A program made the translations under genes and the position numbers. Shown one piece after another: positions 37,201 through 62,952 of a stretch of DNA of 64,000 nt (position 1 is the stretch's first letter; each line of letters begins with the position of its first letter). Under the pieces are notes generated by a model. It ran no database searches and was not told the origin of the DNA. It saw nothing but the letters and a program-made list of their open reading frames with translations. The stretch comes from Kutzneria buriramensis (GTDB taxonomy: Bacteria > Actinomycetota > Actinomycetes > Mycobacteriales > Pseudonocardiaceae): NCBI RefSeq assembly GCF_003387475.1, contig NZ_QUNO01000001.1:806001-870000 (forward strand). The letters run 5' to 3'.

Positions 37201-37554
37201 AAGGCCGTCACGGGCGGCACCCCGCCCGCCGAGCTCGGGGCGCCCGGCATCGCGCCGGTGGACGCCGCTCCGCCGGACATCGCCGTACGGGTGTCGGACG
37301 GGCCGAGCGGCCGGCTGCTGGTGCTGGCCGCCGAGGACGAGCCCGGCTGGCGGGCGACCGTGGACGGCCGTCAGGTGGCCACCGTGCGGGCCTGGGGCCA
37401 CCTCATCGCGGTCCCGGTGCCGACCACCGCCGCCGACGTCACCGTCGACCAGCCCGGCACCCTGCGGAGCTTCCTGCTCCTGGCCCAGGCCGCCTTCCTG
37501 CTCTTCACGGTGCTTGTTTCGCCGCGTGCCGCGGCGGAGCGAGGCCGCCTTTGA
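34261..37554 (+). CDS. large membrane glycosyltransferase: GT2 domain plus multi-helix C-terminus
   Basis: 1097 residues. TTG start with GGGAG upstream. GT2 domain within 1-~300: VLAVLVCHDGEAWLRLAL, AVDTGSRDRTSKLL, LLHDDSAPEPDCL and MLGDDLDFGWRANKAG. A basic linker (~330-460) follows, then about ten hydrophobic segments (~475-850), and a final soluble part with beta-rich LLVLAAEDEPGWRATVDGRQVA and a terminal helix. A similar gene sits beside whiB in other actinomycetes. It could assemble or export a surface polysaccharide. The copy-A structured element overlaps its last ~35 bp. Confidence 0.9.
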   Translation: MPGKAQPVLRTAPVLAVLVCHDGEAWLRLALSALRRSTPRPRHVIAVDTGSRDRTSKLLAEAASGDKPVLDGVLTMSRGTGFGDAVRAAVGHAIQRWGDPGRWLWLLHDDSAPEPDCLAALLAAAEMSPAAGVLGPLGLDWNDPTTVVSAGLSTDSSGHRQTGISTLESAQARFFEQSTESLAVASAGSLIARELWSRLDGYDPVLPMLGDDLDFGWRANKAGSLVLSVPTARLRHVRAASVGERRLDALAAPPGPFRRGVERAHGVRTFLVNCALPSFLIGLPRLVLLCLLRAMGFLVLRRVPDARAELGAVRYLLSGRGHLLSARADRRRTSIAGQKSVRGLFTSRLTRLRNAIRSGLAVLVRRRVQADAVLGRLPAPETARTAWLDPEDSRNAKLPVGPQALPAGALRGAPRRPAGLRRPAAVVVPVAAQTPMGMRPSPRPRPSPRRRGEEAPNPLADLMIVEVDRGEVIRQLLLSPALWMFAALSVLGVLVNVGRLGTDLVGGRLLPVRDLATTWSTYLATWHPVAGGTAAPAPAALAVLGSLGAVLGGPKAAVAVLMFGDLPLAGVSAYLATRRMRVARPIRALVAATYALLPAAATAVSQGRLDVVVVHLVLPLVLAGAATLLRGNAPGTWVATVASTSIGLAVIGAFSPLTHLLVLVGVLIGFVAVPGHRRVLALFGIVLLPLALLLPWPAVVLQHPDVLLHGIGARLPDPAEPWTRIVTLDPGGPEALGVIGAFVVVAGVSAAVLRANRNVLPGLVVAVGGAVVVAFLWHNRVWTGAPMLVAGAGLLLVVLGACVPAPVVWSIPHVRFAAVSAAVVVVGVLAASALLAGRQGPLRAGGDPRFVPAIANELASTGETVLEVAHGDRPTRLTAGGLAGFGDDDLEPVPGAAERIAKLGADLIGTDHDAARAAVAQLAADGVSYIVLPDTAAAGRLHDSVGELASASPPMSDGRPVVRVQLANGHVVLLAPQQAQKAVTGGTPPAELGAPGIAPVDAAPPDIAVRVSDGPSGRLLVLAAEDEPGWRATVDGRQVATVRAWGHLIAVPVPTTAADVTVDQPGTLRSFLLLAQAAFLLFTVLVSPRAAAERGRL

Positions 37555-37670
37555 GCCGGTGCCTGTCCCTTGCCGGATTTTTCGAGCGCCGCGTCGGCTT
37601 CCTGGTGGGTACGCCGGGTGGCGCCGCTCGAAAAATCTGCCAACCGTGCCAAGCACCGGCGCGGCCTCGC
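37520..37670. repeat. structured intergenic element, copy A
   Basis: A mini-hairpin CGCCGCG-TGC-CGCGGCG (37520-37536) is followed by a long stem. Outer arms are GCGAGGCCGC (37539-37548) with GCGGCCTCGC (37661-37670), then GCCGGTGC (37555-37562) with GCACCGGC (37653-37660). A perfect 13-bp core stem GATTTTTCGAGCG (37576-37588) pairs with 37625-37637. The left end includes the last codons and stop of the glycosyltransferase gene. Same architecture as 50802-50920 and 62771-62952. It lies between convergent genes and probably terminates both. Confidence 0.85.
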
Positions 37671-37701
37671 GGCCACCGGGTCACCGGCTCTCAGGCAGGT
37701 C

Positions 37702-38169
37702 TTAATCCCCGTCGATGACGTCCGGGTCCAGGCCCAGGTAGCTGGCGATCTGCTCGACCAGCACGTCGTGCACGAGATCCGCGAGATCCGCCCCGTCCTT
37801 GGCCCGCGCCTCCAGCGGCCGGCGGTACAGCACGATCCGGGCCCGGGTGGGCAGCCCGCGGCGGTCGACCCCGGCCGGCACCAGCCGGGCCAGCGGCACG
37901 TTGCCGTCGTCGACGACGCCGTCCTCCCAGCTCAGCTCGTCGTCCGGCCCGACGTGCACCTCCGGCACGTCGTCCACCGCGACGTCCAGTTGGGTCAACT
38001 CCGTGCGCCAGCGCGCCTCGATCGGCTCGAGCGCCTCGATCACGAGCGCGTCGAAACGCTCGGCCCGGCTGCGCGCGGCGGGCAGCGTCGCCGGATAGAG
38101 GGGTCCCCGCAGGCCACGGCCGTGCCGGTCGCGACTGCGGCGTCCCCGACGCCTGGATCCTCGAGCCAT
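37702..38169 (-). CDS. metallopeptidase-like (zincin-fold) protein, Rv3259 type
   Basis: 155 residues from ATG 38169; a GTG 6 bp earlier is possible. Basic N-terminus (RGSRRRGRRSRDRHGRG), then FDALVIEALEPIEARW, DVAVDDVPEVH and ARIVLYRRPLEARAKDGADLADLVHDVLVEQIASYLG. The family has a minimal HExxH-type site; here the position reads HDVLVEQ, so catalytic competence is doubtful. Neighbours whiB and the DUF3499 gene are the same as in mycobacteria, which secures the assignment more than the motif does. Confidence 0.82.
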   Translation of the reverse strand: MARGSRRRGRRSRDRHGRGLRGPLYPATLPAARSRAERFDALVIEALEPIEARWRTELTQLDVAVDDVPEVHVGPDDELSWEDGVVDDGNVPLARLVPAGVDRRGLPTRARIVLYRRPLEARAKDGADLADLVHDVLVEQIASYLGLDPDVIDGD

Positions 38170-38240
38170 CACCACGGCCAGTCAGCGTACGCGGGGGCGT
38201 GTCACCCGCGTGCCTGCACGCCGCCAAGAGTGGGAAGCGC

Positions 38241-38254
38241 TATCGTCAGCGATC
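38241..38254 (+). promoter_or_regulatory. -10 element, leaderless-type
   Basis: TATCGT (38241-38246) with eight bases to the GTG of the DUF3499 gene and no Shine-Dalgarno site, consistent with a leaderless mRNA for the mannose operon. Confidence 0.5.
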
Positions 38255-38626
38255 GTGCGGAGCGTGAGGCGGTGCTCGCGAACCGGGTGTACGAACCCGG
38301 CAGTCGCCACGCTCACCTACGCCTATGCGGACTCCACCGCGGTCGTCGGACCCCTGGCCACCTACTCCGAACCGCACAGTTACGACCTGTGCGAGGAGCA
38401 CGCCATGCGGCTCACGGTGCCCCGCGGCTGGGAGGTCGTCAGGCATGAGGGTGAGTTCGCCGCTCCCGAGCCGTCGGTCGACGACCTGACGGCGCTCGCG
38501 GAGGCGGTGCGGGAGGCCGGCCGGGCCGACCGACCGGTGGACCGGGTCGATCCGACCCGGGTCGACCCGATGGGGGCCCATCGTCGGGGCCACCTGCGGG
38601 TGTTGCCCGACCCGATCGAGGACTGA
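38255..38626 (+). CDS. DUF3499 family protein
   Basis: 123 residues from GTG, giving an N-terminus (VRSVRRCSRTGCTNPAVATLTY) that lines up with mycobacterial Rv3258c. Cysteines at about 7 and 12 and later a Cys-x2-His (LCEEHAMRL) suggest a small zinc-binding module. Conserved ADSTAVVGPLATYSEPHSYDLC in the middle; the tail is polar and variable. No function known for the family. First gene of the manB-trm112-SIS-manA cluster, so linked to mannose/envelope metabolism by position only. Confidence 0.9.
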   Translation: MRSVRRCSRTGCTNPAVATLTYAYADSTAVVGPLATYSEPHSYDLCEEHAMRLTVPRGWEVVRHEGEFAAPEPSVDDLTALAEAVREAGRADRPVDRVDPTRVDPMGAHRRGHLRVLPDPIED

Positions 38627-38677
38627 ACGCGCCGGTAGGCTGGCATCCGAACAGATCCGAGCTACCGGGGAGAAGGC

Positions 38678-40027
38678 GTGCCCGACCTGTCTGCGATCGT
38701 CAAGGCCTACGACATCCGTGGGGTGGTCGGCGAGCAGCTCGACGCCGCCGTGACCCGGGAGCTGGGCGCCGCGTTCGCCAAGCTGGTGGGTGGCCCGTCC
38801 GTGGTCATCGGGTACGACATGCGGGACTCGTCGCCGGCGCTGTCGGCGGCCTTCGCCGAGGGCGTGACCAGCCAGGGCGTCGACGTCGTCTCCATCGGCC
38901 TGGCCAGCACCGACATGCTGTACTTCGCCTCCGGCAAGCTCCAGCTGCCCGGCGCGATGTTCACCGCCAGCCACAACCCCGCCAAGTACAACGGGATCAA
39001 GCTCTGCCGGGCCGGCGCGGCGCCGGTGGGCCAGGACAGCGGCCTGGCCGAGATCCGGGAGTGGGCGCAGCAGGGGGTGCCGGCCGTCGAGGGCCGTCAC
39101 GGCAGCGTGAGCGAGCGGAACATGCTCGCCGACTACGCCGCCTACCTGCGCGAGCTCGTGGACCTCAGCGGCATCCGCCCGCTGAAGATCGCGGTCGACG
39201 CCGGCAACGGCATGGGCGGCTACACGGTGCCCGAGGTGTTCGCCGGGCTGCCGATCGAGGTCGTCCCGATGTACTTCGAGCTGGACGGCAACTTCCCGAA
39301 CCACGAGGCCAACCCGCTGGACCCGGCCAACCTGGTCGACCTCCAGCGCAGGGTGGTCGAGGTGGGCGCGGACGCCGGCCTGGCCTTCGACGGCGACGCG
39401 GACCGCTGCTTCGTGGTCGACGCCGACGGCAACCCGGTCTCGCCGAGCGCGGTGACGGCCCTGGTCGCCACCCGCGAGCTGGCCAAGGACCCGGGCGGCA
39501 CGATCATCCACAACCTGATCACCTCCCGCTGCGTGCCGGAGATCGTGGAGGAGCACGGCGGCAAGCCGGTGCGGACCCGCGTCGGGCACTCGTTCATCAA
39601 GCAGCGGATGGCCGAGACCGGCGCCATCTTCGGCGGCGAGCACTCGGCGCACTACTACTTCCGCGACTTCTGGCGGGCCGACACCGGCATGCTGGCCGCC
39701 ATGCACGTGCTGGCCGCGCTGGGCGAGCAGGACGGGTCGCTGGCCGAGCTGACCGCCGAGTTCTGCCGCTACGAGGCGTCCGGCGAGATCAACTCGACCG
39801 TCGCCGACCAGGCCGCCAGCACCGCCGCCGTGCGGGCGGCGTTCGCCGACCGCGAGGGTGTGACCTTCGACGAGCTGGACGGCATGACCGTCGACCTCGG
39901 AGACGGCCGCTGGTTCAACCTGCGCGCCTCCAACACGGAGCCGCTGCTGCGGTTGAACGTGGAGGCACCCGACGCGGGCGCGGTCGCCGCGCTGCGCGAC
40001 GAGGTGCTGGCCATCGTGCGGCGCTGA
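38678..40027 (+). CDS. manB: phosphomannomutase/phosphoglucomutase
   Basis: 449 residues, alpha-D-phosphohexomutase. Active-site serine in TASHNP (96-101), Mg-binding FDGDADR at about 237-243, sugar-binding GEHSAHYYFRDFW, and phosphate-binding RASNTEPLLRLNVEA near the C-terminus. Interconverts mannose-6-P and mannose-1-P, supplying the ManC substrate. GTG start. The other steps, manA and manC, are in the window, so the GDP-mannose pathway from fructose-6-P is complete here. Confidence 0.96.
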   Translation: MPDLSAIVKAYDIRGVVGEQLDAAVTRELGAAFAKLVGGPSVVIGYDMRDSSPALSAAFAEGVTSQGVDVVSIGLASTDMLYFASGKLQLPGAMFTASHNPAKYNGIKLCRAGAAPVGQDSGLAEIREWAQQGVPAVEGRHGSVSERNMLADYAAYLRELVDLSGIRPLKIAVDAGNGMGGYTVPEVFAGLPIEVVPMYFELDGNFPNHEANPLDPANLVDLQRRVVEVGADAGLAFDGDADRCFVVDADGNPVSPSAVTALVATRELAKDPGGTIIHNLITSRCVPEIVEEHGGKPVRTRVGHSFIKQRMAETGAIFGGEHSAHYYFRDFWRADTGMLAAMHVLAALGEQDGSLAELTAEFCRYEASGEINSTVADQAASTAAVRAAFADREGVTFDELDGMTVDLGDGRWFNLRASNTEPLLRLNVEAPDAGAVAALRDEVLAIVRR

Positions 40028-40052
40028 GACTTCTTCGCTAGGGAGGAACCCG

Positions 40053-40259
40053 ATGGCCGTCCAGCTCGATCCGCAGCTGCTGGAGATCCTGCGCTGCCCG
40101 TCGCCCGACCACGCGCCGCTGCGCCCGGGCACCCCGGACGACGCCGACGCGGACATGCTGACCTGCACCGAGTGCGGGCGCGGCTACCCCGTCCAGGACG
40201 GCATCCCGGTGCTGCTGCTGGACGAGGCGGTGCCGCCGCCGGGCGGCCTGGCCGGGTGA
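40053..40259 (+). CDS. Trm112 family protein
   Basis: 68 residues. ATG with GGGAGGAA upstream. Two Cys sites, ILRCPSPDHAPL and LTCTECGRGYPVQDGIPVLL, match Trm112p-like zinc-binding proteins, which in other organisms activate methyltransferases. The bacterial partner here is unknown. Sits between manB and the SIS gene, as in other actinobacteria. Confidence 0.92.
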   Translation: MAVQLDPQLLEILRCPSPDHAPLRPGTPDDADADMLTCTECGRGYPVQDGIPVLLLDEAVPPPGGLAG

Positions 40260-40265
40260 CCTGAC

Positions 40266-41342
40266 GTGCTCGACGACACCCTGCTCGACGACCCGTCACG
40301 GCTGGCCGACACCGACAGCGGCGGGCTGCTGCGCGCCGCCGCGATGTCCGGCGCGCAGGTGCGCGCGGTCGCGGAGGCCGCCGAGGAGGCGGGCGTCGGG
40401 CGGCTCGCCGACGAGCGCCCGCGGGCCCTGGTGCTGGTGACCCGGCCGGGCATCGGCGTGGCCGCCGCGCAGCTGCTGGCCGCCCTTCTGACGCCGGCGT
40501 GCCCGGTGCCGGTGGTGCTGGCCGAGGCGGTGCCGAGCTGGATCGGGGCCCTGGACCTGGTCATCGCCCACACCGACGACCCCGGCGACGTGGTGCTGGC
40601 GGAGTCCCTGGACCGGGCGACCCGGCGCGGCGCGCGCGTGGTCGTGACGGCCCCGCCGGACGGGCCGGTGGCGGCCGCGGCCGCCGGGCGCGGCGTGCTG
40701 CTGCCGCCGCGCGTGCCGGTGCCGACCGGCTTCGGCTTCGCCCGCGCGCTGGCCGCCGGCCTGGTCGTGGTCGGGGCGCTCGGGCTGCTCCGCACGGACA
40801 TCGCCGAGCTGGCCGACGAGTTGGACCGCGAGGCCGAGCGGGACCACCCGATGCACGAGTCGTTCGTGAACCCGGCCAAGAGCCTGGCGCTGCGCGTCGC
40901 CGACCGCACGCCGCTGCTGTGGGGCCTGGACCCGGCGGCCACCGCCGTGGCCTGGCACGCCGCGTTCGTGCTGGCCAGCCACGCCGGCCTGGTCAGCGAC
41001 GTGGCCGGCTACCAGCAGGCCATCGGGCGCGCGGCCCTGCACCGCGCCGCCGTCCAGTCCAGCTCCGGCAGCGACCTGTTCGCCGATCCGGACGACGAGC
41101 AGCCCACCCAGCCCCGGGTGCTGCTGCTGGCCGTCGGCCGCAGCGACGCCGCCGAGGCGATGCGCCGCACGGCCGAGGCGACGATGGCCGGCGCCGACGT
41201 GATCCGGTTGGACGAGGTCTCCGGCGGCGATGCCACCTGCGCCGCGGTGCTTGCCCTGCGTTTCGAGCTGGCCGCCCTCTACCTGGGGCTCGCGGCCGGC
41301 ACCATCGGCGGCCCCGGGTATTTCGCCCCGGCCGCCGTGTGA
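40266..41342 (+). CDS. SIS-domain protein (Rv3256c-like)
   Basis: 358 residues, GTG start 6 bp after the Trm112 gene. Two alpha/beta halves as in sugar isomerase proteins: ALVLVTRPGIGVAAAQLLAALL, LVIAHTDDPGDVVLAESLDRATRRGARVVV, and LALRVADRTPLLWGLDPAATAVAWHAAFVLASHAG. Related to bifunctional phosphoglucose/phosphomannose isomerases, but clear catalytic residues were not identified. Located upstream of manA by 14 bp. A role in mannose-phosphate metabolism is inferred. Confidence 0.88.
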   Translation: MLDDTLLDDPSRLADTDSGGLLRAAAMSGAQVRAVAEAAEEAGVGRLADERPRALVLVTRPGIGVAAAQLLAALLTPACPVPVVLAEAVPSWIGALDLVIAHTDDPGDVVLAESLDRATRRGARVVVTAPPDGPVAAAAAGRGVLLPPRVPVPTGFGFARALAAGLVVVGALGLLRTDIAELADELDREAERDHPMHESFVNPAKSLALRVADRTPLLWGLDPAATAVAWHAAFVLASHAGLVSDVAGYQQAIGRAALHRAAVQSSSGSDLFADPDDEQPTQPRVLLLAVGRSDAAEAMRRTAEATMAGADVIRLDEVSGGDATCAAVLALRFELAALYLGLAAGTIGGPGYFAPAAV

Positions 41343-41356
41343 GGGAGTGACGACGA

Positions 41357-42589
41357 GTGGAGTTGCTGCACAACGCGGTGCGCCCCTACGCATGGGGCTC
41401 GCGCACCGCGATCGCTGAGCTGCTCGGCAAGCCCGTGCCGGCCCCGCACCCGGAGGCCGAGCTGTGGATGGGGGCGCACCCGGGCGGCCCGTCCCGCCTC
41501 GTCGACGCGGACGGCGACGAACGGTCCCTGCTCGACGTGCTCGCCGCCGACCCCGACGGCCAACTCGGCCCGGCGCTGGCCGAGCGCTGGGGCGGCCGGC
41601 TGCCGTTCCTGCTCAAGGTGCTGGCCGCCGATGAGCCGCTGAGCCTGCAGGCCCACCCGTCCGCGGCGCAGGCCGCCGAGGGCTTCGCCCGCGAGGAGGC
41701 CGCCGGCATCCCGCGGGACGCCAAGAACCGCAACTACCCGGATCCGACGGCCAAGCCCGAGCTGATCTGCGCGCTGACCGAGTTCCACGCCCTGGCCGGC
41801 TTCGCCGACCCGGAGCGGACCGTGCGGCTGTTGCGCGGCCTGGACACCCCCGGCCTGGACCACTACACCGAGCTGCTGGCCGGCCAGCCCGACGCGGACG
41901 GCCTGCGGGCGCTGTTCACCACCTGGATCACCCTGCCCCAGCAGGCCCTCCAGCAACTGCTGCCGCAACTGCTGGACTCGTGCGTGCGGCAGGTCAAGGA
42001 GCACGGCGAGTTCGACCTGGAGTGCCGGACGGTGCTGGAGCTGGGCGAGGCCTACCCCGGCGACGCCGGCGTGCTGGCCGCCGTGCTGCTGAACCGGATC
42101 GTGCTCCAGCCCGGCGAGGCGATCTACCTGCCCGCCGGCAACCCGCACGCGTACCTGCGCGGCACCGGCATCGAGATCCTCGCCAACTCCGACAACGTGC
42201 TGCGCTGCGGGCTCACCCCCAAGCACGTGGACGTGCCGGAGCTGCTGCGGGTGCTGGACTTCTCGTACGGGCGGATGCCGGTGCAGACCGGCGACGAGGT
42301 CGCCCCGCACGACTTCGTCTACCGGACGCCGGCGGCCGAGTTCGAGCTGTCCCGGCTGGAGTGGTCCTCGGACGCCACCCCGGTGCGGATCGACCACCCC
42401 GGGCCGCAGGTGCTGATCTGCATCGACGGGGCCGTCACGCTGCGCCGTGACGACGGCGTGGAGCTGCCGCTGGGCCGCGGCGAGTCGGCCTGGCTGGCCG
42501 CCGCCGACCCGGCCGTGGACGTCGTGCCGACCAGCCTGCCGGCCTCGGTGTTCCGGGCCACTGCCGGGGTCGGTTCGTCCACCAATTAG
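41357..42589 (+). CDS. manA: mannose-6-phosphate isomerase, class I
   Basis: 410 residues, cupin-fold zinc enzyme converting fructose-6-P to mannose-6-P. Signatures: NAVRPYAWGSRTAIAELLG, ELWMGAHPGGPS, LPFLLKVLAADEPLSLQAHPS (zinc ligands), PELICALTEFHALAGF and YLPAGNPHAYLRGTGIEILANSDNVLRCGLTPKHVD. GTG start with GGGAGTGA upstream. Entry point to GDP-mannose, used for mannosylated glycolipids and glycans of the envelope. Confidence 0.97.
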   Translation: MELLHNAVRPYAWGSRTAIAELLGKPVPAPHPEAELWMGAHPGGPSRLVDADGDERSLLDVLAADPDGQLGPALAERWGGRLPFLLKVLAADEPLSLQAHPSAAQAAEGFAREEAAGIPRDAKNRNYPDPTAKPELICALTEFHALAGFADPERTVRLLRGLDTPGLDHYTELLAGQPDADGLRALFTTWITLPQQALQQLLPQLLDSCVRQVKEHGEFDLECRTVLELGEAYPGDAGVLAAVLLNRIVLQPGEAIYLPAGNPHAYLRGTGIEILANSDNVLRCGLTPKHVDVPELLRVLDFSYGRMPVQTGDEVAPHDFVYRTPAAEFELSRLEWSSDATPVRIDHPGPQVLICIDGAVTLRRDDGVELPLGRGESAWLAAADPAVDVVPTSLPASVFRATAGVGSSTN

Positions 42590-42600
42590 GGTTTTGTCCC

Positions 42601-43515
42601 ATGTCAGCAGGGGGCGGTACCAAAGCCATTGTCGCCGCGCTGAGCGCCAACGCCGGCATCGCGGTCGCGAAGTTCGTGGGCTTCGCCGTGACGGGATCGT
42701 CGTCGATGCTCGCCGAGGGCGTGCACTCGGTCGCCGACACCGCCAACCAGGGGCTGCTGCTGCTCGGCAAGCGGACCTCGCAGCGCAAGGCGGACGCCGA
42801 GCACCCGTTCGGCTACGGCCGCGACCGGTACTTCTACTCGTTCGTCGTCGCCCTGCTGCTGTTCACGCTGGGGGCGCTGTTCGCCATGTACGAGGGCGTC
42901 CACAAGGTGGAGGCCCCGGAGCCCCTGGACGCGCCGATCGTGGCCGTGGTGATCCTCGGCCTGGCCGTGCTGTTGGAGGGCTACAGCTTCCGCACCGCGA
43001 TGGCCGAGTCGCGGGAGCTGCGCGGCAGCGCCACCTGGTGGCAGTTCATCCGCCAGGCCAAGGTGCCCGAGCTGCCGATCGTGCTGCTGGAGGACACCGG
43101 GGCCCTGTTCGGCCTGGTGTTCGCGCTGCTGGGAGTCGTGCTGTCGCTGGTCACGGGCAATCCCGTGTGGGACGGCATCGCCACCATCGCCATCGGCGCG
43201 CTGCTCGGGCTGATCGCGGTCGTGCTGATCATCGAGATGAAGAGCCTGCTCATCGGCGAGGGCGCCGGCCCGGAGCTCTTGGCCACCATCGTGCGGGAGC
43301 TGGAGGGCGGCAACGTGGAGCGGGTGATCCACATCCGCACCCAGTACCTCGGGCCGGAGGAGATCCTGGTCGCCGCCAAGCTCGCCTTCGACGGCACCGA
43401 CTCCGTCGCCGACGTCGCCCGGTCCATCGACGAGGCGGAGGTTCGGGTGCGATCCGCGGTACCGGCGGCCCGTCTCATCTACCTGGAACCCGATCTTGAC
43501 AGGACTCCTCGGTAG
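42601..43515 (+). CDS. cation diffusion facilitator family transporter
   Basis: 304 residues. About six helices: IVAALSANAGIAVAKFVGFAV, then MLAEGVHSVADTANQGLLLLG, which holds the HxxxD metal site, and YFYSFVVALLLFTLGALFAMYEG. The C-terminal soluble domain ends in ALKLAFDGTDS-like and PAARLIYLEPD. CDF proteins exchange divalent metal (Zn, Co, Fe or Mn) for protons. ATG start 11 bp after manA, so it may share the operon. Metal not predictable. Confidence 0.92.
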   Translation: MSAGGGTKAIVAALSANAGIAVAKFVGFAVTGSSSMLAEGVHSVADTANQGLLLLGKRTSQRKADAEHPFGYGRDRYFYSFVVALLLFTLGALFAMYEGVHKVEAPEPLDAPIVAVVILGLAVLLEGYSFRTAMAESRELRGSATWWQFIRQAKVPELPIVLLEDTGALFGLVFALLGVVLSLVTGNPVWDGIATIAIGALLGLIAVVLIIEMKSLLIGEGAGPELLATIVRELEGGNVERVIHIRTQYLGPEEILVAAKLAFDGTDSVADVARSIDEAEVRVRSAVPAARLIYLEPDLDRTPR

Positions 43516-43550
43516 GGTCGGAGCACCGACAACGGAGTCTGGGAGGGTGC

Positions 43551-45032: not shown

Positions 45033-45044
45033 CGCCCGCGCGGG

Positions 45045-45611: not shown

Positions 45612-45696
45612 GGCGACCTCCCTCGAGCGGGGAAGGTGATCTTCCACACACAGAATGAGGCAGCGCCCGCGTTCACGCCAGTGCGCGGGCACAACG

Positions 45697-45709
45697 TAGC
45701 TTGTCTGTT
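45697..45709 (+). promoter_or_regulatory. -10 element, leaderless-type
   Basis: TAGCTT (45697-45702) with seven bases before the ATG of the MutL-like gene and no Shine-Dalgarno site. Confidence 0.45.
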
Positions 45710-49321: not shown

Positions 49322-50794
<1,473 letters not shown>

Positions 50795-50801
50795 GTTTTT
50801 G

Positions 50802-50920
50802 CCGCGCGTTCCGCGCGGTGCGGGTTCGCCTTTAAGCCGGTGCCTTCCCTTGGCTCAGCTCGATCGATGGAAAGACTCGATCGAGCTGAGCCCGCGGTCC
50901 AGGCACCGGCGCGAACCCGC
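50802..50920. repeat. structured intergenic element, copy B
   Basis: Mini-hairpin CCGCGCG-TTC-CGCGCGG (50802-50818). Outer arms GCGGGTTCGC (50820-50829) with GCGAACCCGC (50911-50920), and GCCGGTGCCT (50836-50845) with AGGCACCGGC (50901-50910), both perfect. A 16-bp perfect core GGCTCAGCTCGATCGA (50852-50867) pairs with 50877-50892 around a 9-base loop. Starts 8 bp after sahH. Relative to copy A the outer arm changed at three positions on both sides, keeping the pairing. Confidence 0.88.
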
Positions 50921-50945
50921 GTAGGTTGCCGGCGGCGAGCTGTGG

Positions 50946-55000: not shown

Positions 55001-55138
55001 GAGAACGGCCAGTCCGACTTCCGGGTGTCCTCCGACGGCGCCGGCGACGCCAGCGCCGAGACGATAGCGTCGGCCGGCGTCACGGTGACCGGTCCGGACG
55101 TGCTGGCGGTTCGGCAGTGCCCAACGGCTACGCCTTGA
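52079..55138 (+). CDS. secreted GH92 family alpha-mannosidase
   Basis: 1019 residues. Signal peptide RPVVVILIALALLAPPAVAG. GH92 catalytic region (~25-750): LIGTGSAGAEVGEINNFPGPSTPFGM, SGYSYEDKTVKGFSLTH-type segment, ASVGCRQFGDVPILP, FNDVDGSYAGFDGKVH, FSGWDIYRC, and GNDDLGAQSAWYVWCALGLYPVTPG. A NEW3-like beta domain (~765-850) and a CBM6-like module (~880-1010) follow. GH92 enzymes are calcium-dependent exo-alpha-mannosidases, usually alpha-1,2. It would release mannose outside the cell. No transporter is linked. The ATG is preceded by GGGGG. Confidence 0.92.
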   Translation: MRPVVVILIALALLAPPAVAGLPPAADPVALTDPLIGTGSAGAEVGEINNFPGPSTPFGMLQWSPDTADHYAGYSYEDKTVKGFSLTHASVGCRQFGDVPILPVSGDVGATPWSLQEPFTHAGEQASPGYYTVTAGGVKTELTTALRAGQGRFTFPPNAPAHVLVKAGGSLNGDTAATVAFPDDHTVTGSATSGGFCGQGNKYTVYYVITFDRPFAARSSWSGRATPTPTVVPPDEADRGIAGPQISGPQVGATLDFDTGKDATVRAKVAISFVSVDGARRNLDAGAPAWDFDGTRAATRARWASYLGRITIGGGAQDQLKTFYAALYHSFQYPVTFNDVDGSYAGFDGKVHNTGGRTQYANFSGWDIYRCQIPLLATLAPDETSDMMQSLVNDADQYGWLPKWPVYNDESAVMNGDSVAPIIAGAYAFGARNFDTAEALAQLVKGATKDGSVGWGYQERPNTVAYQRLGYVPSSADESVSMTEEYAIDDFAIGRFADALGDDDTAAAFAARGQNWQHVFDPTTGYVRPHAADGAFPGGPVLVPPPPDQFAPTGFAEGNPAQYTWMVPQNTAGLIGAVGGHDAAVQRLDDLFTKLNVGPVQPYYWAGNEPMFSVPWAYDYLDQPWKTQDVVHRVQTELFAATPDGEPGNDDLGAQSAWYVWCALGLYPVTPGTTDLAVNTPVFPHVAIRTGTGRQIVIEAQGVGPHIQGLAINGVGWNQSSLPADLLAWGGHVTYSLGDGTAWTASPPRSYRDGETPLGFVTPLGVSTQNTFQVGVRNGTNQPVQMPWKLTVPPGATASLTQGQLSVPANGTASVPVTMTALANGIYPVHVDFGGKQRATAYLAVPGADHTATGCTTLGATNTDCGLTQVEYAADGATTPVEVDGVSGRRMVKAHDWGDYRYLYFQADQRAVPGTGPYEATITVRYLDAGKDTFTIQYDSVNRSYVDATRVTKTGTGTWKDVTVTVKDAKFGHRENGQSDFRVSSDGAGDASAETIASAGVTVTGPDVLAVRQCPTATP

Positions 55139-56459: not shown

Positions 56460-56572
56460 CTGCGGCTACGTCTGGCGCGGGTACGAACACGATAGGTTGC
56501 CTCGGCGTCAGAGTCCCGTTTTACCTGGGCCGTTTCGTCACCCGATCGGTTAAGTCCGTAGGGTGGACGCCC

Positions 56573-57208
56573 GTGGCGAGGCTGGTCGTGATCGAGGGAC
56601 TTGACGGCGCGGGCAAGCGGACGCTGTCCGACGCGCTCACCGCGGAGCTGGACAAACGGGGTGCGACGGCGACGAGGATCGCCTTCCCCCGCTACGGCGA
56701 GGACGTGCACGCCGACCTCGTCCGCGACGCGATGTACCTGCGGCTCGGCGATCTCGTGAAATCGGTGCACGGCATGGCCGTCCTGTTCGCGCTGGACCGC
56801 CAGGCCGCCGCCCCCAAGATCGCCGAGGCGCTCGCCGCGCACGACGTGGTCCTGCTGGACCGCTACATCGCGTCCAACGCGGCATATGGGGCGGCGCGGC
56901 TGCACGAGGATGTAAACGGCGAGTTCGTGCGCTGGGTTCACGACCTCGAGGTCGGTCGGTTCGCGCTGCCGCTGCCCGACCGCCAGCTGCTGCTCCGGGT
57001 GCCGGTGGAGGTGGCGGCGCAGCGGGCGGCCGGTCGCGAGCAGACCGAACGCGAGCGGGACAGCTACGAGACCGACGACGGCCTCCAGGCCCGCTGCGCG
57101 ATGGTCTACGACCAGTTCGTCGAGGCGGGCTGGCTGGCCCCGTGGACCGTGGTGGACGGCGTCGCCGGCGCCGACTTCGGGGCGCTCGCCGACCTGCTGC
57201 TCGGTTAG
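56573..57208 (+). CDS. tmk: thymidylate kinase
   Basis: 211 residues, dTMP to dTDP. P-loop GLDGAGKRT at 9-17, with the actinobacterial Asp-Gly-Ala variant, DRYIASNAAYGAARL (base recognition), and the LID region AAGREQTERERDSYETDD. GTG start. Sits just upstream of mtrA as in mycobacteria, but here the VOC gene is inserted between on the other strand. The stop is interlocked with it in TTAG. Confidence 0.96.
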   Translation: MARLVVIEGLDGAGKRTLSDALTAELDKRGATATRIAFPRYGEDVHADLVRDAMYLRLGDLVKSVHGMAVLFALDRQAAAPKIAEALAAHDVVLLDRYIASNAAYGAARLHEDVNGEFVRWVHDLEVGRFALPLPDRQLLLRVPVEVAAQRAAGREQTERERDSYETDDGLQARCAMVYDQFVEAGWLAPWTVVDGVAGADFGALADLLLG

Positions 57209-57693
57209 AGCGCCCCCACCAGGTCGCCGCCCCAGCGCTCGATCTCCGCGTCCAGATCCAGCGGCTTGGTCGCGGACGCCTCCTTCATCGCCTCGGTGAC
57301 CCGGTCCAGCGGCACCAGCCAGGACACCTCGAACTCGATGCCGTCGGGGTCCTTGGCGTACAGCGCCTTGGTCGTCACGTGGTCCGACGCGCCGACGAGC
57401 GCGCCCGCCTCGCGCAGCCGGTTCGCGTGGTCGGCGAGGTCCGTCAGCGTGGTCACCGACCAGGCCAGGTGGTACAGGCCCACCGTGTCGCGGCCCGCGC
57501 CGGACGGCTTGGCGTCCGCGCCGACCTGGAACAGGCCCAGGTCGTGGTCGTTGTCGGAGTCCGGGGCCTGGAGGAACGCGGCGCCTGGGAACTGGTGCAC
57601 CACCCGGAAACCGAGCACGTCGGTGTAGAAGGCGACGCTGCGCTCGGTGTCGCGCACGTACAGGACCGCGTGGTTGAGCCGGCGGATCGCCAT
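57205..57693 (-). CDS. VOC family protein (glyoxalase/extradiol dioxygenase fold)
   Basis: 162 residues from ATG, with GGGAGGTAACG immediately upstream. Two VOC repeats: LNHAVLYVRDTERSVAFYTDVLGFRVV and YHLAWSVTTLTDLADHANRLREAG, then the metal Glu in KDPDGIEFEVSW. The His and Glu positions fit catechol 2,3-dioxygenase-like metal sites. It may detoxify an aromatic compound or an electrophile. Its promoter has a MarR-like palindrome over the -10. Inserted between tmk and mtrA on the opposite strand. Confidence 0.9.
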   Translation of the reverse strand: MAIRRLNHAVLYVRDTERSVAFYTDVLGFRVVHQFPGAAFLQAPDSDNDHDLGLFQVGADAKPSGAGRDTVGLYHLAWSVTTLTDLADHANRLREAGALVGASDHVTTKALYAKDPDGIEFEVSWLVPLDRVTEAMKEASATKPLDLDAEIERWGGDLVGAL

Positions 57694-57714
57694 CGTTACC
57701 TCCCGGGCATCGTT

Positions 57715-57732
57715 GTTCAATATTCAACTATA
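57715..57732 (-). promoter_or_regulatory. -10 element and palindromic operator of the VOC gene
   Basis: On the minus strand TATAGT (57727-57732) is a good -10. The palindrome GTTCAATATTCAAC (57715-57728) overlaps and follows it, as for a MarR-family repressor site. No regulator gene is adjacent. Confidence 0.5.
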
Positions 57733-57738
57733 CCTTCG

Positions 57739-57759
57739 GTAACGAACGGTGAGCGTTAC
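57739..57759. promoter_or_regulatory. GTAACG/CGTTAC inverted repeat in the VOC-mtrA intergenic region
   Basis: GTAACG and CGTTAC separated by nine bases, in the 232-bp gap between the divergent VOC gene and mtrA. It could serve either gene. MtrA autoregulation is possible, but I cannot confirm a match to the MtrA consensus. Confidence 0.35.
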
Positions 57760-57925
57760 ACGCTGTAGTTCGTGAACTCGACGGGGACGAGGGTGGTGAT
57801 GGCGCATGACCGAGCGCTGGACCAGCACGGCGGAGCGCAACGGACCGGTCGCAGCGGGTGGCGACCGCGCCGGTGATCGCTGGGGTGCGCGCGGCCGCCC
57901 GGTCAGCAGTGCGACGATGGTAGGC

Positions 57926-58603
57926 ATGAAGGCACGCGTCCTGGTGGTCGATGACGACCCGGCCCTGGCGGAGATGCTCACCATCGTGCTGCGCGGTGAG
58001 GGGTTCGACACCGCAGTCGTCGCCGACGGCGCGCGGGCGCTGCCCGCGCTGCGTGAGCTCAAACCCGACCTGGTGCTGCTCGACCTGATGCTGCCCGGGA
58101 TGAACGGCATCGACGTGTGCAAGGCCATCAGGGCCGAGTCCGGCGTGCCGATCGTGATGCTCACCGCCAAGAGCGACACCGTGGACATCGTGCTGGGCCT
58201 CGAGTCCGGCGCCGACGACTACGTGGTCAAGCCGTTCAAGCCCAAGGAACTGGTGGCCCGCATCCGCACCCGGCTGCGCCGCACCGAGTCCGAGCCCGCC
58301 GAGGTGCTCGCCATCGGCGACCTGGCCATCGACGTGCCCGGCCACGAGGTGACCCGGGACGGGCAGGCCATCCAGCTCACGCCGCTGGAGTTCGACCTGC
58401 TGGTGGCGCTGGCCCGCAAGCCGCGCCAGGTGTTCACCCGCGAGGTGCTGCTCGAGCAGGTGTGGGGCTACCGGCACGCCGCCGACACCCGGCTGGTGAA
58501 CGTGCACGTCCAGCGGCTGCGGTCGAAGGTGGAGAAGGACCCGGAGCACCCCGAGGTGGTGTTGACCGTCCGCGGCGTCGGGTACAAGGCCGGCCCTCCG
58601 TGA
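57926..58603 (+). CDS. mtrA: two-component response regulator MtrA
   Basis: 225 residues, OmpR/PhoB type. The receiver domain has acidic VVDDDP, phospho-acceptor Asp53 (LVLLDLMLPGMNGIDVC), Thr in MLTAK and Lys in VVKPFKPKEL. The C-terminal winged helix has LTPLEFDLLVALARKPRQVFTREVLLEQVWGYRH and ends VVLTVRGVGYKAGPP, nearly identical to mycobacterial MtrA. MtrA controls cell division and envelope genes. ATG 57926; an ATG 9 bp earlier is equally possible. Long upstream in-frame reading has no conservation and is not used. mtrB follows after 14 bp. Confidence 0.97.
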   Translation: MKARVLVVDDDPALAEMLTIVLRGEGFDTAVVADGARALPALRELKPDLVLLDLMLPGMNGIDVCKAIRAESGVPIVMLTAKSDTVDIVLGLESGADDYVVKPFKPKELVARIRTRLRRTESEPAEVLAIGDLAIDVPGHEVTRDGQAIQLTPLEFDLLVALARKPRQVFTREVLLEQVWGYRHAADTRLVNVHVQRLRSKVEKDPEHPEVVLTVRGVGYKAGPP

Positions 58604-58617
58604 TCGGGGTCTGACGG

Positions 58618-61008
58618 ATGCGGCTCGACACCGGACCGGTGACTCGGTGGCTGCGGGAGGCGCCGAGCCTGGTTCGGGAGCGCTGGCAGCGGGCCAGCGA
58701 GCTGTGGCGGCGGTCGTTGCAGCTGCGGGTGGTGGTGAGCACCCTCGCGCTGTCCTCGGCCGTCGTCTTCGTGCTGGGCATGGTGCTCCAGTCGCAGATC
58801 ACCGACCAGATGCTGGGCAGCAAGCAGCTGGCCGCCACCGCGCAGATCCGGGCCAGCGTCACCGCCGTCCAGCACCAGCTGGTCGGCGTCAGCCCCGGCC
58901 CGGACAGCCTGAGCACCCGCTTCAACGCCGCGCTCAACGCGCTCACCAGCAGCGGCTCGGCCACTGTGGACGGGTCGTCGGCCGGCGCCTTCGAGCCGAT
59001 CCTGGCCGACGCCCGGTCGCTGGACTCCGCCGGCAACGTCGTGTCCACCGCCGACTACGGCGACATCCCGGACGACCTCAAGCGGTTCGTGCTCAACGAC
59101 GAGATCGCCAGCCGGATCCACACCGTCACCCGCGACGGCGTGCCGACCACGATGCTCATGGTCGGCGCCCAGGTGCCCAGCGCCAGCCACCCGATCCAGC
59201 TGTACGAGCTGTTCCCGCTGACCGCCGAGCAGCACACCACCGGGGTCGTGCAGAACACGCTGATCGTCGGCGGCATCGTGTTGCTGCTGTTGCTGGCCGG
59301 CATCACCAACCTCGTCACCCGGCAGGTGGTCCGGCCCGTGCGGCAGGCCGCCGAGGTGGCCGAGCGGTTCGCCGACGGCAAGCTCGACGACCGGATGCCC
59401 GTCGTCGGCGAGGACGACGTGGCCCGGCTGGCCGAGTCGTACAACGAGATGGCCGAGAGCATCCAGGCCCAGATCCGGCAGCTCGAGGAGTTCGGGCTGT
59501 TGCAGCGCCGGTTCACCTCCGACGTGTCGCACGAGCTGCGCACGCCGCTGACCACCGTGCGGATGGCCGCCGACGTGCTGCACGCCTCCCGCGAGCAGTT
59601 TCCCGCCGGCCTGGCCCGGTCCACCGAGCTGCTGGTCGACGAGCTGGACCGGTTCGAGGCGCTGCTCGGCGACCTCCTGGAGATCAGCCGTCTGGACGCC
59701 GGGGTCGACGAACTCACCGCCGACCTGGTCGATGTGCGGGGCGTCGTCGAGCGGGCGGTCGCCGCCGTCGGTCCCGTCGCCGTCAGCTCCGGCACCCCGG
59801 TCGAGACGTACATGCCGGCCGTCGAGGTGCCGGCCGAGATCGATTCGCGTCGGGTCGAACGCGTGCTGCGCAACCTGCTCAACAACGCCGTCGACCACGG
59901 CGAGGGCCTGCCCGTGCGGGTCCGCGTCGCCGCCGACGAGAACGCCGTCGCCATCGTCGTCCGGGACTTCGGCGTCGGCCTGCGCGACGGCGAGGCCGAA
60001 CTGGTGTTCAACCGGTTCTGGCGGGCCGACCCGTCCCGGAACCGCCGGACCGGCGGCACCGGCCTGGGCCTGGCGATCAGCGTCGAGGACGCCCGGCTGC
60101 ACGGCGGTTGGCTGGAGGCGTGGGGCGAACTCGGCGAGGGCGCCTGCTTCCGGCTCACGCTGCCGCGCCGGCAGGGCTTCGAGCTCACCGACAGCCCGCT
60201 CCCGCTGCCGCCCGACGAGGAGCGGCCGGTCCGTGAGGCCGAGGAGAGCGAGGTCAGCCCCCTCGTCGTCGCCGAGGTCGAGGCCGACGCCGAGGTCGAG
60301 GAGATCGCCTGGCAGCCCGCCGAGTCCGTGGAGCTCGACGAGCCCGCGCCGGAAGCGGCCGATCCGGAGCTCGCCTGGCACCCCGCCGACACCAAGGCCG
60401 TCGACGCCGCCGGCGAGCAAACCGGCGACGGCGTCACCGAGGACGAGCTCGTGGAGCACGGCGAGATCGGACCCGACCCGGAGTTCGACAGCGTGCCCGG
60501 CCTCCCCGCGACGACGGTCCAAGGGCAGTCGGGGCCCGGCGAGGTCGGCCCGGATCCGGAGTTGGACGGCGTGCCGGGCGTGCCCTCGACGGCCGCTCAG
60601 GCGGAGCCCGGCGAGGTGGGCCCGGATCCGGAGCTGGACGGCGTGCCGGGCGTGCCCTCGACGGCCGCCCAGCCGAAGCCCGGCGAGGTCGACCCGGATC
60701 CGGAGCTGGACAGCGTGCCGGGCGTGCCCTCGACGGCCGCTCAGGCGGAGCCCGGCGAGGTGGGCCCGGATCCGGAGCTGGACGGCGTGCCGGGCGTGCC
60801 CTCGACGGCCGCCCAGCCGAAGCCCGGCGAGGTCGACCCGGATCCGGAGCTGGACAGCGTGCCGGGCGTGCCCTCGACGGCCGCTCAGTCGGGGCCCGGC
60901 GAGGTGGGCCCGGATCCGGAGCTGGACGGCGTGATCGGCCCCGATCCCGAGCTGGACGGCGTGCCCCAGACTGCCGTTCGTTCCCAGTCCGTCGGGGAGG
61001 CCCGGTGA
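58618..61008 (+). CDS. mtrB: sensor histidine kinase MtrB with long repetitive C-terminal tail
   Basis: 796 residues; mycobacterial MtrB is about 567. Helices at ~38-58 and ~212-232 flank an extracellular domain, HAMP at ~233-290, HisKA with phospho-His305 (FTSDVSHELRTPLTTV), and HATPase boxes NLLNNAVDHG (419-), DFGVG (450-) and TGGTGLGL (478-). The kinase core ends at ~518. Residues 519-796 are acidic, Pro-rich and cytoplasmic, with a tandem repeat from ~615. ATG start. Phosphorylates MtrA. Overlaps lpqB by 4 bp. Confidence 0.96.
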   Translation: MRLDTGPVTRWLREAPSLVRERWQRASELWRRSLQLRVVVSTLALSSAVVFVLGMVLQSQITDQMLGSKQLAATAQIRASVTAVQHQLVGVSPGPDSLSTRFNAALNALTSSGSATVDGSSAGAFEPILADARSLDSAGNVVSTADYGDIPDDLKRFVLNDEIASRIHTVTRDGVPTTMLMVGAQVPSASHPIQLYELFPLTAEQHTTGVVQNTLIVGGIVLLLLLAGITNLVTRQVVRPVRQAAEVAERFADGKLDDRMPVVGEDDVARLAESYNEMAESIQAQIRQLEEFGLLQRRFTSDVSHELRTPLTTVRMAADVLHASREQFPAGLARSTELLVDELDRFEALLGDLLEISRLDAGVDELTADLVDVRGVVERAVAAVGPVAVSSGTPVETYMPAVEVPAEIDSRRVERVLRNLLNNAVDHGEGLPVRVRVAADENAVAIVVRDFGVGLRDGEAELVFNRFWRADPSRNRRTGGTGLGLAISVEDARLHGGWLEAWGELGEGACFRLTLPRRQGFELTDSPLPLPPDEERPVREAEESEVSPLVVAEVEADAEVEEIAWQPAESVELDEPAPEAADPELAWHPADTKAVDAAGEQTGDGVTEDELVEHGEIGPDPEFDSVPGLPATTVQGQSGPGEVGPDPELDGVPGVPSTAAQAEPGEVGPDPELDGVPGVPSTAAQPKPGEVDPDPELDSVPGVPSTAAQAEPGEVGPDPELDGVPGVPSTAAQPKPGEVDPDPELDSVPGVPSTAAQSGPGEVGPDPELDGVIGPDPELDGVPQTAVRSQSVGEAR
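60460..60975 (+). repeat. 72-bp tandem repeat array inside mtrB
   Basis: Five full 72-bp units start at 60538, 60610, 60682, 60754 and 60826, encoding 24 residues around GPDPELDGVPGVPSTAAQ. A degenerate unit precedes (60460) and partial units follow (60898, 60934). Units alternate between endings AEP and PKP, giving a 144-bp higher-order period, so recent duplication of a two-unit block is likely. All are in frame, with no stop. Confidence 0.95.
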
Positions 61009-62759
61009 TCCGGCGGTCCCGCCCGGCGCTGACGCTGATCGCGGTGCTCACGGCCCTGATCACGGTCGCGGGCTGTGCGGCGATCCCGGACGAGACGCCG
61101 GCGGCGGGGCTGGCGGCCGGCGGCGCGGGCGACCGGGTGGCGCCGGCGCCGGACCCACAGCCGAACCTCCAGCCGGCCGACCTGGTGCGGGCGTTCCTCG
61201 ACGCCAACGCCGATCCCACCAACAGCTACGCCGCGGGCCGGCCCTACCTGACCAAGGCGGCGCAGGCCAAGTGGCAGCCCGACGCGCCGGTCACGATCAT
61301 CCAGAACACCTTCAACACGCTGCCGGAGCAGACCAAGGCCGACCACGCCACGGTGACGGTGATCAGCCAGACGGTCGGGGTGCTCGGCACCGACAAGGCG
61401 TTCGTGCCGAGTTCCGCGCCCAGCACGCTGATCGTGCAGGTGGACAAGCAGGACGGCCAGTGGCGGATCAGCCAGCCGCCGTCGGGCGTGGTCATGACCC
61501 TGGACCGGTTCAACGAGGTCTACCGGCAGACCCGCCTGTACTTCCTGGACCCGCAGAAGCGCGTGCTCGTGCCCGACCTGCGCTACATCGTGTCGCAGCC
61601 GAGCTACAGCCTGCCGAGCCGGGTGATCGACCTGCTGCTGGCCGGTCCGTCCAACGGCATGCAGGGCGCGGTCACCAGCGCGCTCGGCGCGCAGGCGGCG
61701 CTCCAGACCGGCGGCACCGAGTCCGGCGACGGCGCGCTGCTGGTCAATCTCAGCCACGTCGGCGACACCTCGCCGGCGAACGTGAAGCTGATCATCGCGC
61801 AGGTCGTGCAGTCGCTGGCCGTGGTCACCAACAGCCGGATCCGCATCCAGCAGGACGGCGTGCAGCTGTCCCCGGACCGCCTGGACTGGCGGATCGGCGA
61901 CCTGCCGGCGTACGACAGCGGCACCAGCCCCGGGCCCGACCAGACCGGCCTGCTCGTGCACGACGGCCGGGTCAAGCAGCTCGACGACAAGCCCGTGAAC
62001 GGGCCGGCCGGCAACGGCGGCTACTACGTCTCGACCGCCGCGCAGTCCATCGACGGCAGCGAGCTGGCCACCGTCAGCAAGCCCCCCGGCACCAGCGCCG
62101 CCGAGCTGCGGGTCGGGGGCCTCACCCAGGTCAACCCGGTGGTCGACCTGACCGCGGGCACACTGACCCGGCCGACGTGGGTGTCGACCGACTCGGCCAC
62201 CGACGTCAGCAACGAGGTGTGGACCGTCGCCGACGGCAGCCGGGTGGCCCGCGTGATCAAGTCGGCCGACGGCACCTGGGTGGCGCGCACGGTCAACTCG
62301 AACGACCTCAGCCAGTTCGGCCAGATCACCGACCTGCGGCTGTCCCGGGACGGCACGCGGGCTGCGGTCATCGCGAACTCGCTGCTCATCGTGTGCGCCG
62401 TGGTCCGCACGCCCAACTCCGACACGGTGACGCTGCGCTCGCCCCGGGTGCTGCTCCAGGACACGCTGAACAGCGTCGTCGGCGTGGACTGGCTGCTCCA
62501 GGACCAGCTGGTCGTCGCGACCTCCTCCCAGGAGTCGCCGGTCGTGCAGGTGTCCGTCGACGGCAGCCCGACGTTCGTCCGCTACAACGCGGCCAACCTG
62601 ACCGCGCCGGTCTCGGCGGTCACGGCGGCGCCGAGCCGCCCGGTGATCGTGGTGGACGCCGGCGGTATGTGGACCTCCTCGGACTCGGGTTCGGTGTGGC
62701 GGGTCCAGGGCATCGCGGTCGGCAAGTCGTCGAACGCCGTGCCCTTCTACCCCGGCTAG
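61005..62759 (+). CDS. lpqB: lipoprotein LpqB, MtrAB accessory protein
   Basis: 584 residues. The signal and lipobox end VAGC with lipidated Cys24. GerMN-like domain at ~190-310 (RYIVSQPSYSLPSRVIDLLLAGPS, then ALLVNLSHVG), followed by a beta-propeller-like C-terminal half (ELATVSKPPGTSAAELRVGG onward). In mycobacteria LpqB interacts with the MtrB sensor and affects MtrA phosphorylation. GTG start overlaps mtrB stop by 4 bp. The structured copy-C element follows the stop. Confidence 0.96.
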   Translation: MIRRSRPALTLIAVLTALITVAGCAAIPDETPAAGLAAGGAGDRVAPAPDPQPNLQPADLVRAFLDANADPTNSYAAGRPYLTKAAQAKWQPDAPVTIIQNTFNTLPEQTKADHATVTVISQTVGVLGTDKAFVPSSAPSTLIVQVDKQDGQWRISQPPSGVVMTLDRFNEVYRQTRLYFLDPQKRVLVPDLRYIVSQPSYSLPSRVIDLLLAGPSNGMQGAVTSALGAQAALQTGGTESGDGALLVNLSHVGDTSPANVKLIIAQVVQSLAVVTNSRIRIQQDGVQLSPDRLDWRIGDLPAYDSGTSPGPDQTGLLVHDGRVKQLDDKPVNGPAGNGGYYVSTAAQSIDGSELATVSKPPGTSAAELRVGGLTQVNPVVDLTAGTLTRPTWVSTDSATDVSNEVWTVADGSRVARVIKSADGTWVARTVNSNDLSQFGQITDLRLSRDGTRAAVIANSLLIVCAVVRTPNSDTVTLRSPRVLLQDTLNSVVGVDWLLQDQLVVATSSQESPVVQVSVDGSPTFVRYNAANLTAPVSAVTAAPSRPVIVVDAGGMWTSSDSGSVWRVQGIAVGKSSNAVPFYPG

Positions 62760-62770
62760 CAGTGTCTTTG

Positions 62771-62952
62771 CCGCGCGTTCCGCGCGGGGCGAGGCCGTGT
62801 TTCGGCGCCGCCTTCGGCGTCGCGGCTCGGCCGCTCGTGACCGGTGCCTCGCCCTTGCCGGATTTCGACCGCCGCGTCGGCTCGGCGGTGGGGTGCGTCG
62901 GGTGGCGGCGATCGAAATCCAGCAACCGGGCGAAGCACCGGCGCGGCCTCGC
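62771..62952. repeat. structured intergenic element, copy C
   Basis: Mini-hairpin CCGCGCG-TTC-CGCGCGG (62771-62787), identical to copy B. Outer arms GCGAGGCCG (62789-62797) pair with CGGCCTCGC (62944-62952), and CCGGTGC (62841-62847) with GCACCGG (62935-62941). The core GGATTTCGA (62860-62868) pairs with 62912-62920. A 43-bp bulge with its own small hairpin (GCGCCG-CCTT-CGGCGT region) sits between the left arms. Lies between lpqB and convergent comF. Confidence 0.85.

What the first reader, a model, noticed from the sequence alone, without database searches (positions are those of the whole stretch)
37520..62952. A repeated structured intergenic element with compensatory base changes
Three copies (37520-37670, 50802-50920, 62771-62952) share the same plan: a CCGCG mini-hairpin, an outer two-part stem with a left bulge near CTTT, the constant CCGGTGC/GCACCGG pair, and a variable core stem. 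In the outer arm, copy A/C GCGAGGCC pairs with GGCCTCGC, whereas copy B has GCGGGTTC with GAACCCGC: three positions changed on both sides, preserving pairing. The cores also differ completely yet stay paired. All three lie between convergent genes. This is a candidate undescribed family of bidirectional terminators or mobile palindromic repeats, and copy A even supplies a stop codon.
Basis: partly seen in the sequence, partly recalled or inferred. Interest (0 to 1): 0.78.

Follow-up and report, generated by a model that had tools for sequence, protein, structure and literature searches.

The report
Mobile hairpin repeats in Kutzneria genomes
The three hairpins belong to a large, apparently mobile family of DNA palindromes scattered between genes in this bacterium and its relatives; they look like tiny passengers that settle behind genes rather than transcription stop signals, and what moves them is unknown.

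Summary
In detail: three copies, one architecture, compensatory changes. They belong to a high-copy family: 32 copies on one 1.03-Mb contig of an 11.97-Mb genome. Six of 7 genomes of the genus carry it; one is Kutzneria viridogrisea. Weaker relatives were scored in 4 other genera of the family.

The copies behave as mobile DNA. At 16 of 25 sites compared, no element was detected in a close relative; at three occupied sites it differs in type, orientation or place. Copy A breaks into a gene end that five relatives have without it. Terminator-like hairpins persist beside the element in two relatives, and no U-tract terminator was found at copies A-C, so a terminator family is unlikely. No REP-type (Y1) transposase was found in the own genome or in 15 carriers of other genera.

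Stems change on both arms together with almost no G-U pairs, while bulge, internal loop and apical loop stay conserved and oriented. I read it as a MITE/REPIN-like element recognised as a folded single strand by an unidentified enzyme. Enzyme and function are unproven.

The parts
37508..37670 (+). Copy A (C-type): left motif CGGTG 37508-37512, mini-hairpin 37520-37536, outer stem 37539-37548/37661-37670, one-sided bulge 37549-37554, inner stem from 37555, core
   Evidence: sequence; fold; C-type HMM hit on C1 843501-843680; no element at this junction in 5 of 5 relatives compared
37552..37554 (+). TGA inside copy A that ends the ORF 34261-37554 (glycosyltransferase family 2 domain); relatives have a different native C-terminus (read by eye for G005 and G006)
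   Evidence: Pfam
50791..50920 (+). Copy B (B-type): CTGAG 50791-50795 (TGA = stop of the S-adenosylhomocysteine hydrolase gene), mini-hairpin 50802-50818, outer stem 50820-50829/50911-50920, one-sided bulge 50830-50835, inner stem 50836-50845/50901-50910, internal loop TCCCTT 50846-50851 and CGCGGTCC 50893-50900, core 50852-50867/50877-50892, loop TGGAAAGAC 50868-50876
   Evidence: sequence; fold; R1 hit 160.4 bits (copy B was in the model); Pfam
62760..62952 (+). Copy C (C-type, nested): CAGTG 62760-62764, mini-hairpin 62771-62787, outer left arm 62789-62796, second left-end hairpin 62804-62823, then inner stem and core, outer right arm 62943-62952
   Evidence: sequence; fold; BLAST query

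Best explanation
A high-copy, non-coding, non-autonomous mobile element (MITE/REPIN-like) of Kutzneria and other Pseudonocardiaceae, about 130-190 bp. Shown here: shared architecture (left motif CNGNG, short hairpin, then a long hairpin with a one-sided left bulge, an asymmetric internal loop and an oriented apical loop); intergenic placement mostly behind genes with no strand bias; presence, absence or exchange between close species; arms that change together. Inferred: an enzyme acting in trans recognises the element as a folded single strand by its unpaired bases, so stems need only pair. The element inserts at or near short CNGNG-like sequences, sometimes at a stop codon, and copies persist where they do little harm (3' ends). 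The arms are kept complementary by template switching between arms or by copying through a hairpin intermediate. It is not the native terminator of its neighbours.
For: 32 copies on C1. Convergent 13 observed against 4.4 expected and divergent 3 against 9.2; chi-square p 2.5e-5. In G006 no element was detected at 16 of 25 sites compared; of 9 occupied sites 3 differ in type, orientation or place and 1 is a remnant. Four of 11 G006 elements in the first stretch are absent from G000, 1 was unmapped. Copy A breaks into a gene end that 5 relatives have without it. Tandem head-to-tail units occur in G004 and G098. In three orthologous B-type copies 14 pairs changed on both sides and stayed paired, 3 on one side, 0 to G-U; paired sites diverge as much as unpaired ones (11.4% and 8.3%). 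In 93 distinct copies G-U is 17 and A-C 21 of 3957 stem cells, against 20 G-U in 237 tRNA stem pairs. The one-sided bulge is kept in 92 of 93, and the loop TGRNNNGAY in 76 of 78 nine-base loops, 0 inverted.
Against: No mobilising enzyme found: Y1 none in the own genome, one partial match among 7 genus genomes, none in 15 other carriers; Y2 none, but its control was silent; genes near closely spaced copies looked ordinary by eye in the 13 of 20 regions listed. No target-site duplication seen, and exact ends not settled: CNGNG letters pre-exist at some element-free sites and not at others. Ectopic gene conversion could explain type differences at occupied sites without new insertion. One of the 16 'empty' sites (701788) keeps letters like a left end. 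No movement was observed. Alignments made with R1 lean towards its structure, and most copies in them are B-type. In the C/C orthologue 598978 there were 2 double and 3 single changes in 47 pairs, a weaker pattern.
Confidence: 0.72

Rival explanations
1. A family of bidirectional transcription terminators at convergent gene ends, amplified or maintained for that job.
For: Strong hairpins, enrichment at 3' ends and convergent gaps, no orientation bias relative to genes (19 of 42 tandem).
Against: 0 terminator-like sites in scans of the three copies (the scan only knows U-tract terminators). Terminator-like hairpins remain downstream of the element in G006 and G001 at sahH and stand without it in G002 and G005 (by eye). 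No element detected at 16 of 25 sites in a close relative. 6 of 81 copies are in divergent gaps.
Confidence: 0.1
2. A structured RNA element (mRNA 3'-end stabiliser, RNase site or small RNA family) whose RNA fold is under selection, spread by duplication.
For: Compensatory changes in all four helices; conserved unpaired bases; position close behind stop codons.
Against: G-U cells are as rare as A-C cells (17 and 21 of 3957), unlike tRNAs (20 of 237 G-U). Paired sites diverge as fast as unpaired ones in three orthologues. No Rfam match at gathering score in the window, only far sub-threshold hits for copies B and C (copy A not tried at that threshold). No strand preference.
Confidence: 0.13
3. 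A REP/REPIN family moved by a REP-associated tyrosine transposase (RAYT) or another IS200/IS605 Y1 enzyme.
For: Hairpin architecture, intergenic placement and common compensatory changes resemble REPINs (PMC3116915, passages).
Against: PF01797: 0 first-look candidates in the own genome; 1 of 7 genus genomes has a partial match in a 58-aa frame; 0 of 15 other carriers; control genomes ring in 5 of 14.
Confidence: 0.05

Closest known systems
REPINs / REP elements with RAYT transposases (PMC3116915 passages; PMC3733652 start of abstract in a listing)
   Same: Intergenic palindromes in many copies; fold as a hairpin; compensatory changes on both arms; movement proposed in trans by a RAYT, by analogy with IS200/IS605
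   Different: REPs are 20-40 bp and most carry one of two end tags (PMC3733652); here 130-190 bp, a separate left hairpin outside the main stem, CNGNG left motif, and no Y1 transposase found
ERIC sequences of enterobacteria (review PMC10969869, passages)
   Same: Intergenic mobile repeat, tens to hundreds of copies, insertion reported at 3' ends of genes
   Different: Different phylum; sequence comparison with ERIC was not run
MITEs in general (PMC10969869, passages)
   Same: Short, non-coding, presumably moved in trans; core-less deletion remnants occur
   Different: Outer arms are not at the left end (a mini-hairpin lies outside); no target-site duplication seen; no parent insertion sequence found
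Template-switch maintained hairpins (PMC8794818, passages)
   Same: Double stem changes that keep Watson-Crick pairing
   Different: That work concerns RNA genes; here it is a dispersed repeat and the apical loop is not inverted in any of 78 nine-base loops

Membership tests
REP/REPIN with RAYT | Y1 (RAYT) transposase in carrier genomes | tested here: not met
   one partial match in 1 of 7 genus genomes
REP/REPIN with RAYT | Intergenic palindrome in many copies | tested here: met
REP/REPIN with RAYT | 20-40 bp unit | tested here: not met
   unit 130-190 bp
REP/REPIN with RAYT | GTAG or CGTC end tag | tested here: inconclusive
   not in the left consensus by eye; no dedicated search
MITE | Presence/absence polymorphism at orthologous sites | tested here: met
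   no element detected at 16 of 25 sites in G006
MITE | Terminal inverted repeats with target-site duplication | tested here: inconclusive
   stem arms present but mini-hairpin lies outside; no duplication seen by eye; ends not settled
MITE | Parent autonomous element sharing the ends | not tested
   only genes near some closely spaced copies were inspected by eye
Intrinsic terminator | Hairpin followed by U-tract | tested here: not met
   0 sites at the three copies
Intrinsic terminator | Terminates transcription | not testable with these tools
   needs term-seq or reporters
ERIC | Sequence similarity to the ERIC consensus | not tested
   no ERIC sequence was compared
Known Rfam RNA family | Match at gathering score | tested here: not met
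   0 in window; only far sub-threshold

The most novel reading that the evidence does not exclude
A family-wide mobile element of Pseudonocardiaceae moved as a folded single strand by an enzyme class not yet linked to small palindromic repeats. Recognition would rest on the conserved unpaired bases, with stem arms rewritten as a block by hairpin-templated DNA copying at each move. That would make it a second, RAYT-independent solution to REPIN-like mobility.
Probability: 0.3. Interest if true: 0.75.

Novelty: new variant of a known kind. Interest (0 to 1): 0.5.

Why it matters
If right, it adds a mobile palindrome family of high copy number in a lineage known (from recall) for antibiotic producers, with no known transposase. 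Its stems show how both arms of a hairpin can be rewritten together. This warns that covariation alone is not proof of a functional RNA, and the G-U against A-C count used here is a simple check for that.

Tried and rejected
Terminator reading: rejected as main explanation. RAYT/Y1: not met. IS91-type Y2 (PF04986): nothing found, but the control rang nowhere, so this shows little. Genes between closely spaced copies as a hidden autonomous partner: translations of 13 of the 20 regions fetched were listed and judged by eye, no family search. Plasmids: no match for copies B and C; phages: no match for copy C; other pairings not tried. The pattern CCGGTGC-gap-GCACCGGCGCG genome-wide was too loose: 5 matches, control 1. 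The window pattern search was no better than shuffles (5 found, mean 4.9). The left-motif pattern was one base out of register, hence its many 3-mismatch rows; 34 matches, control 0. C-type arm test on 28 copies: 917 paired, 7 G-U, 43 A-C, 40 other, 220 gap letters; by eye many A-C come from one conserved C-A position; the excess of A-C there is not explained further and not used as evidence. Literature: searches listed no paper on this repeat in Kutzneria or Pseudonocardiaceae; one search found one mention of Actinomycetota REPs in PMC12306157 and none of Kutzneria, Amycolatopsis or Pseudonocardia. Listings and passages only; no paper was read whole.
Full report
What is there. The window is bases 806001-870000 of contig C1 of an 11.97-Mb genome. 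BLAST of copy C in that genome gave 377 first-look candidates, of which 40 were scored; the first 40 places listed have E below 1e-32. Copy B gave 158 candidates, 40 scored, the first 40 places below 3e-19. HMMs from 30 B-type and 30 C-type copies found 32 merged copies on C1 at E 0.01, which extrapolates to roughly 370 in the genome (inference). The covariance model R1 gave 133 matches at E 0.01 or better, with only 150 candidates scored; some are the reverse strand of a copy already listed.

Who carries it. Six of 7 genomes of the genus (own included; G003, a 4.7-Mb genome, has none), 1 of 18 other genera of the family (one weak match) and 0 of 16 genomes of other families of the order in the first sample. 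In a wider search with stricter filters, 43 of 390 genomes of the family and 5 of 46 genera at E 1e-4 or better (only 8 candidates scored per genome). A collection pattern scan hit Kutzneria viridogrisea DSM 43850; its contig length 341143 equals that of G004:C10, so I infer G004 is that species and the genus is Kutzneria, family Pseudonocardiaceae. The same scan hit one short contig of a Clostridiales metagenome bin, not followed.

Architecture. Left motif CNGNG, a short hairpin, an outer stem, a one-sided left bulge, an inner stem, an asymmetric internal loop and a core hairpin. R1 was run on 85 chosen loci and gave 114 matches; 17 are the reverse strand of a copy already in and were dropped, and 4 of the remaining 97 are duplicates, leaving 93 distinct rows. 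In these the left bulge is 4-7 bases in 92 and absent in 1, and the right side has none in 92. The left internal loop is TCCCTT in 69. Of 78 nine-base apical loops, 76 fit TGRNNNGAY and none is inverted (on all 97 rows the counts were 96, 96, 72 and 80 of 82). Four copies from two other genera keep the bulge and a TCCCT/GTCC internal loop by eye. In 38 left flanks the CNGNG letters are C in 26, G in 29 and G in 26; 5 of 43 copies without a detected hairpin were dropped, and at least 5 of the 38 are anchored on another hairpin.

Mobility. Compared with the close relative G006, 25 of 32 C1 copies had both flanks mapped in the stretches fetched; 7 did not. At 16 no element was detected (one of these, 701788, is itself a remnant in G000 and keeps left-end-like letters in G006); 9 are occupied: C-type against B-type in opposite orientation (606565), same type in opposite orientation and at another place in the gap (973301), B-type against core-less C-type (copy B), a remnant (622378), and five of like type and orientation (copy C, 98500, 585987, 598978, 997887). 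At the sahH junction G000 has B-type, G001 C-type and G006 core-less C-type, all right after the TGAG stop context, while G002, G003, G004 and G005 lack it. At junction A all five relatives compared lack it; in G000 the reading frame runs into the element and uses its TGA. At junction C, G006 has an element, G002 and G005 core-less remnants, G001 and G004 none. G004 shows three abutting units and G098 three at 195-base spacing. Fifteen G004 copies are on average 90% alike, range 79-100%.

Placement. None of 32 C1 copies lies within a gene call; convergent 13, tandem 16, divergent 3, against 4.4, 18.3 and 9.2 expected from intergenic length without elements. Of 82 elements tried, 81 were classified: 33 convergent, 42 tandem, 6 divergent; one lies inside a gene call (L024). 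In tandem gaps the left end faces the stop in 19 of 42. Those outside C1 are top BLAST hits, not a random sample. Gene calls are from my own codon-score script.

DNA or RNA constraint. Covariation is strong, but in 3957 stem cells of the 93 distinct rows there are 3785 Watson-Crick, 17 G-U, 21 A-C and 134 other (on all 97 rows 3953, 17, 22 and 137 of 4129). ARAGORN tRNA calls from this genome and relatives (11 parsed, at least one doubtful) have 20 G-U in 237 pairs; no A-C pair was counted there. In three orthologous B-type copies 14 of 136 pairs changed on both sides and stayed paired, 3 changed on one side and broke, none became G-U; 8 of 96 unpaired columns differ. So the stems are not slower than the loops. 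That fits template switching or hairpin-templated copying (PMC8794818, passages) or block replacement from another copy, and fits stepwise RNA compensation poorly. The C/C orthologue 598978 gave 2 double and 3 single changes in 47 pairs, and C-type arms showed 43 A-C against 7 G-U; neither is explained. Arm correction alone would tend to erase the one-sided bulge and flip loops; that these stay oriented suggests selection on recognition of the folded strand (inference).

Mechanism and limits. No mobilising gene was found. No target-site duplication could be seen. By eye the left-motif letters pre-exist, wholly or as CTGA, at copy A, sahH, 691042 and the G000 counterpart of G006 9634389, and do not at 620286, 670539 and 509067, so it is partly element, partly target. 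All statements about movement are from comparison; none was observed.

Noticed in passing
L040, L042-L051, L053, L056, L058, L059 flanks; element-free copies in L050, L053, L056, L059; G006 at C1 sites 533138, 691042, 929849: A second, shorter intergenic repeat (TGCCTGAAAC..CATTTCGGTGTG..GACTCGCGGGGG) flanks one B subfamily and also stands alone, sometimes at sites that hold the element in the other species.
   Followed up: partly
G006 sites orthologous to C1 628135 and 736050: A third repeat (GTCTCCAAGACCT..CAAACCC) occupies sites where G000 has the element; gene ends seem to host several repeat families in turn.
   Followed up: no
sahH 3' junctions of G001, G002, G005, G006; C1 670539 region: Recurrent hairpins of the kind AAGGGGCCCTTCCTGACGTTCAACGTCAGGAAGGGCCCCTT (G005; arms vary between genomes), perhaps native terminators, lie downstream of or in place of the element.
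   Followed up: partly
G004 (K. viridogrisea), L168-L185: Longer composite around the element in many copies: an upstream hairpin whose loop resembles the element's own core loop (CCGCTGGACTGATGCGG) and downstream spaced GGGACTCG units; L176 and L177 share the element and nearly identical near flanks.
   Followed up: partly
C1 1001823; G006 9754212; G002 and G005 junction C: Core-less remnants with the left hairpin joined to right-end sequence, suggesting recurrent deletion of the core.
   Followed up: partly
28 C-type copies: Arm mismatches in C-type copies are mostly A-C rather than G-U as read with the mini-hairpin on the left; on the other strand these would be G-U. Unexplained.
   Followed up: no
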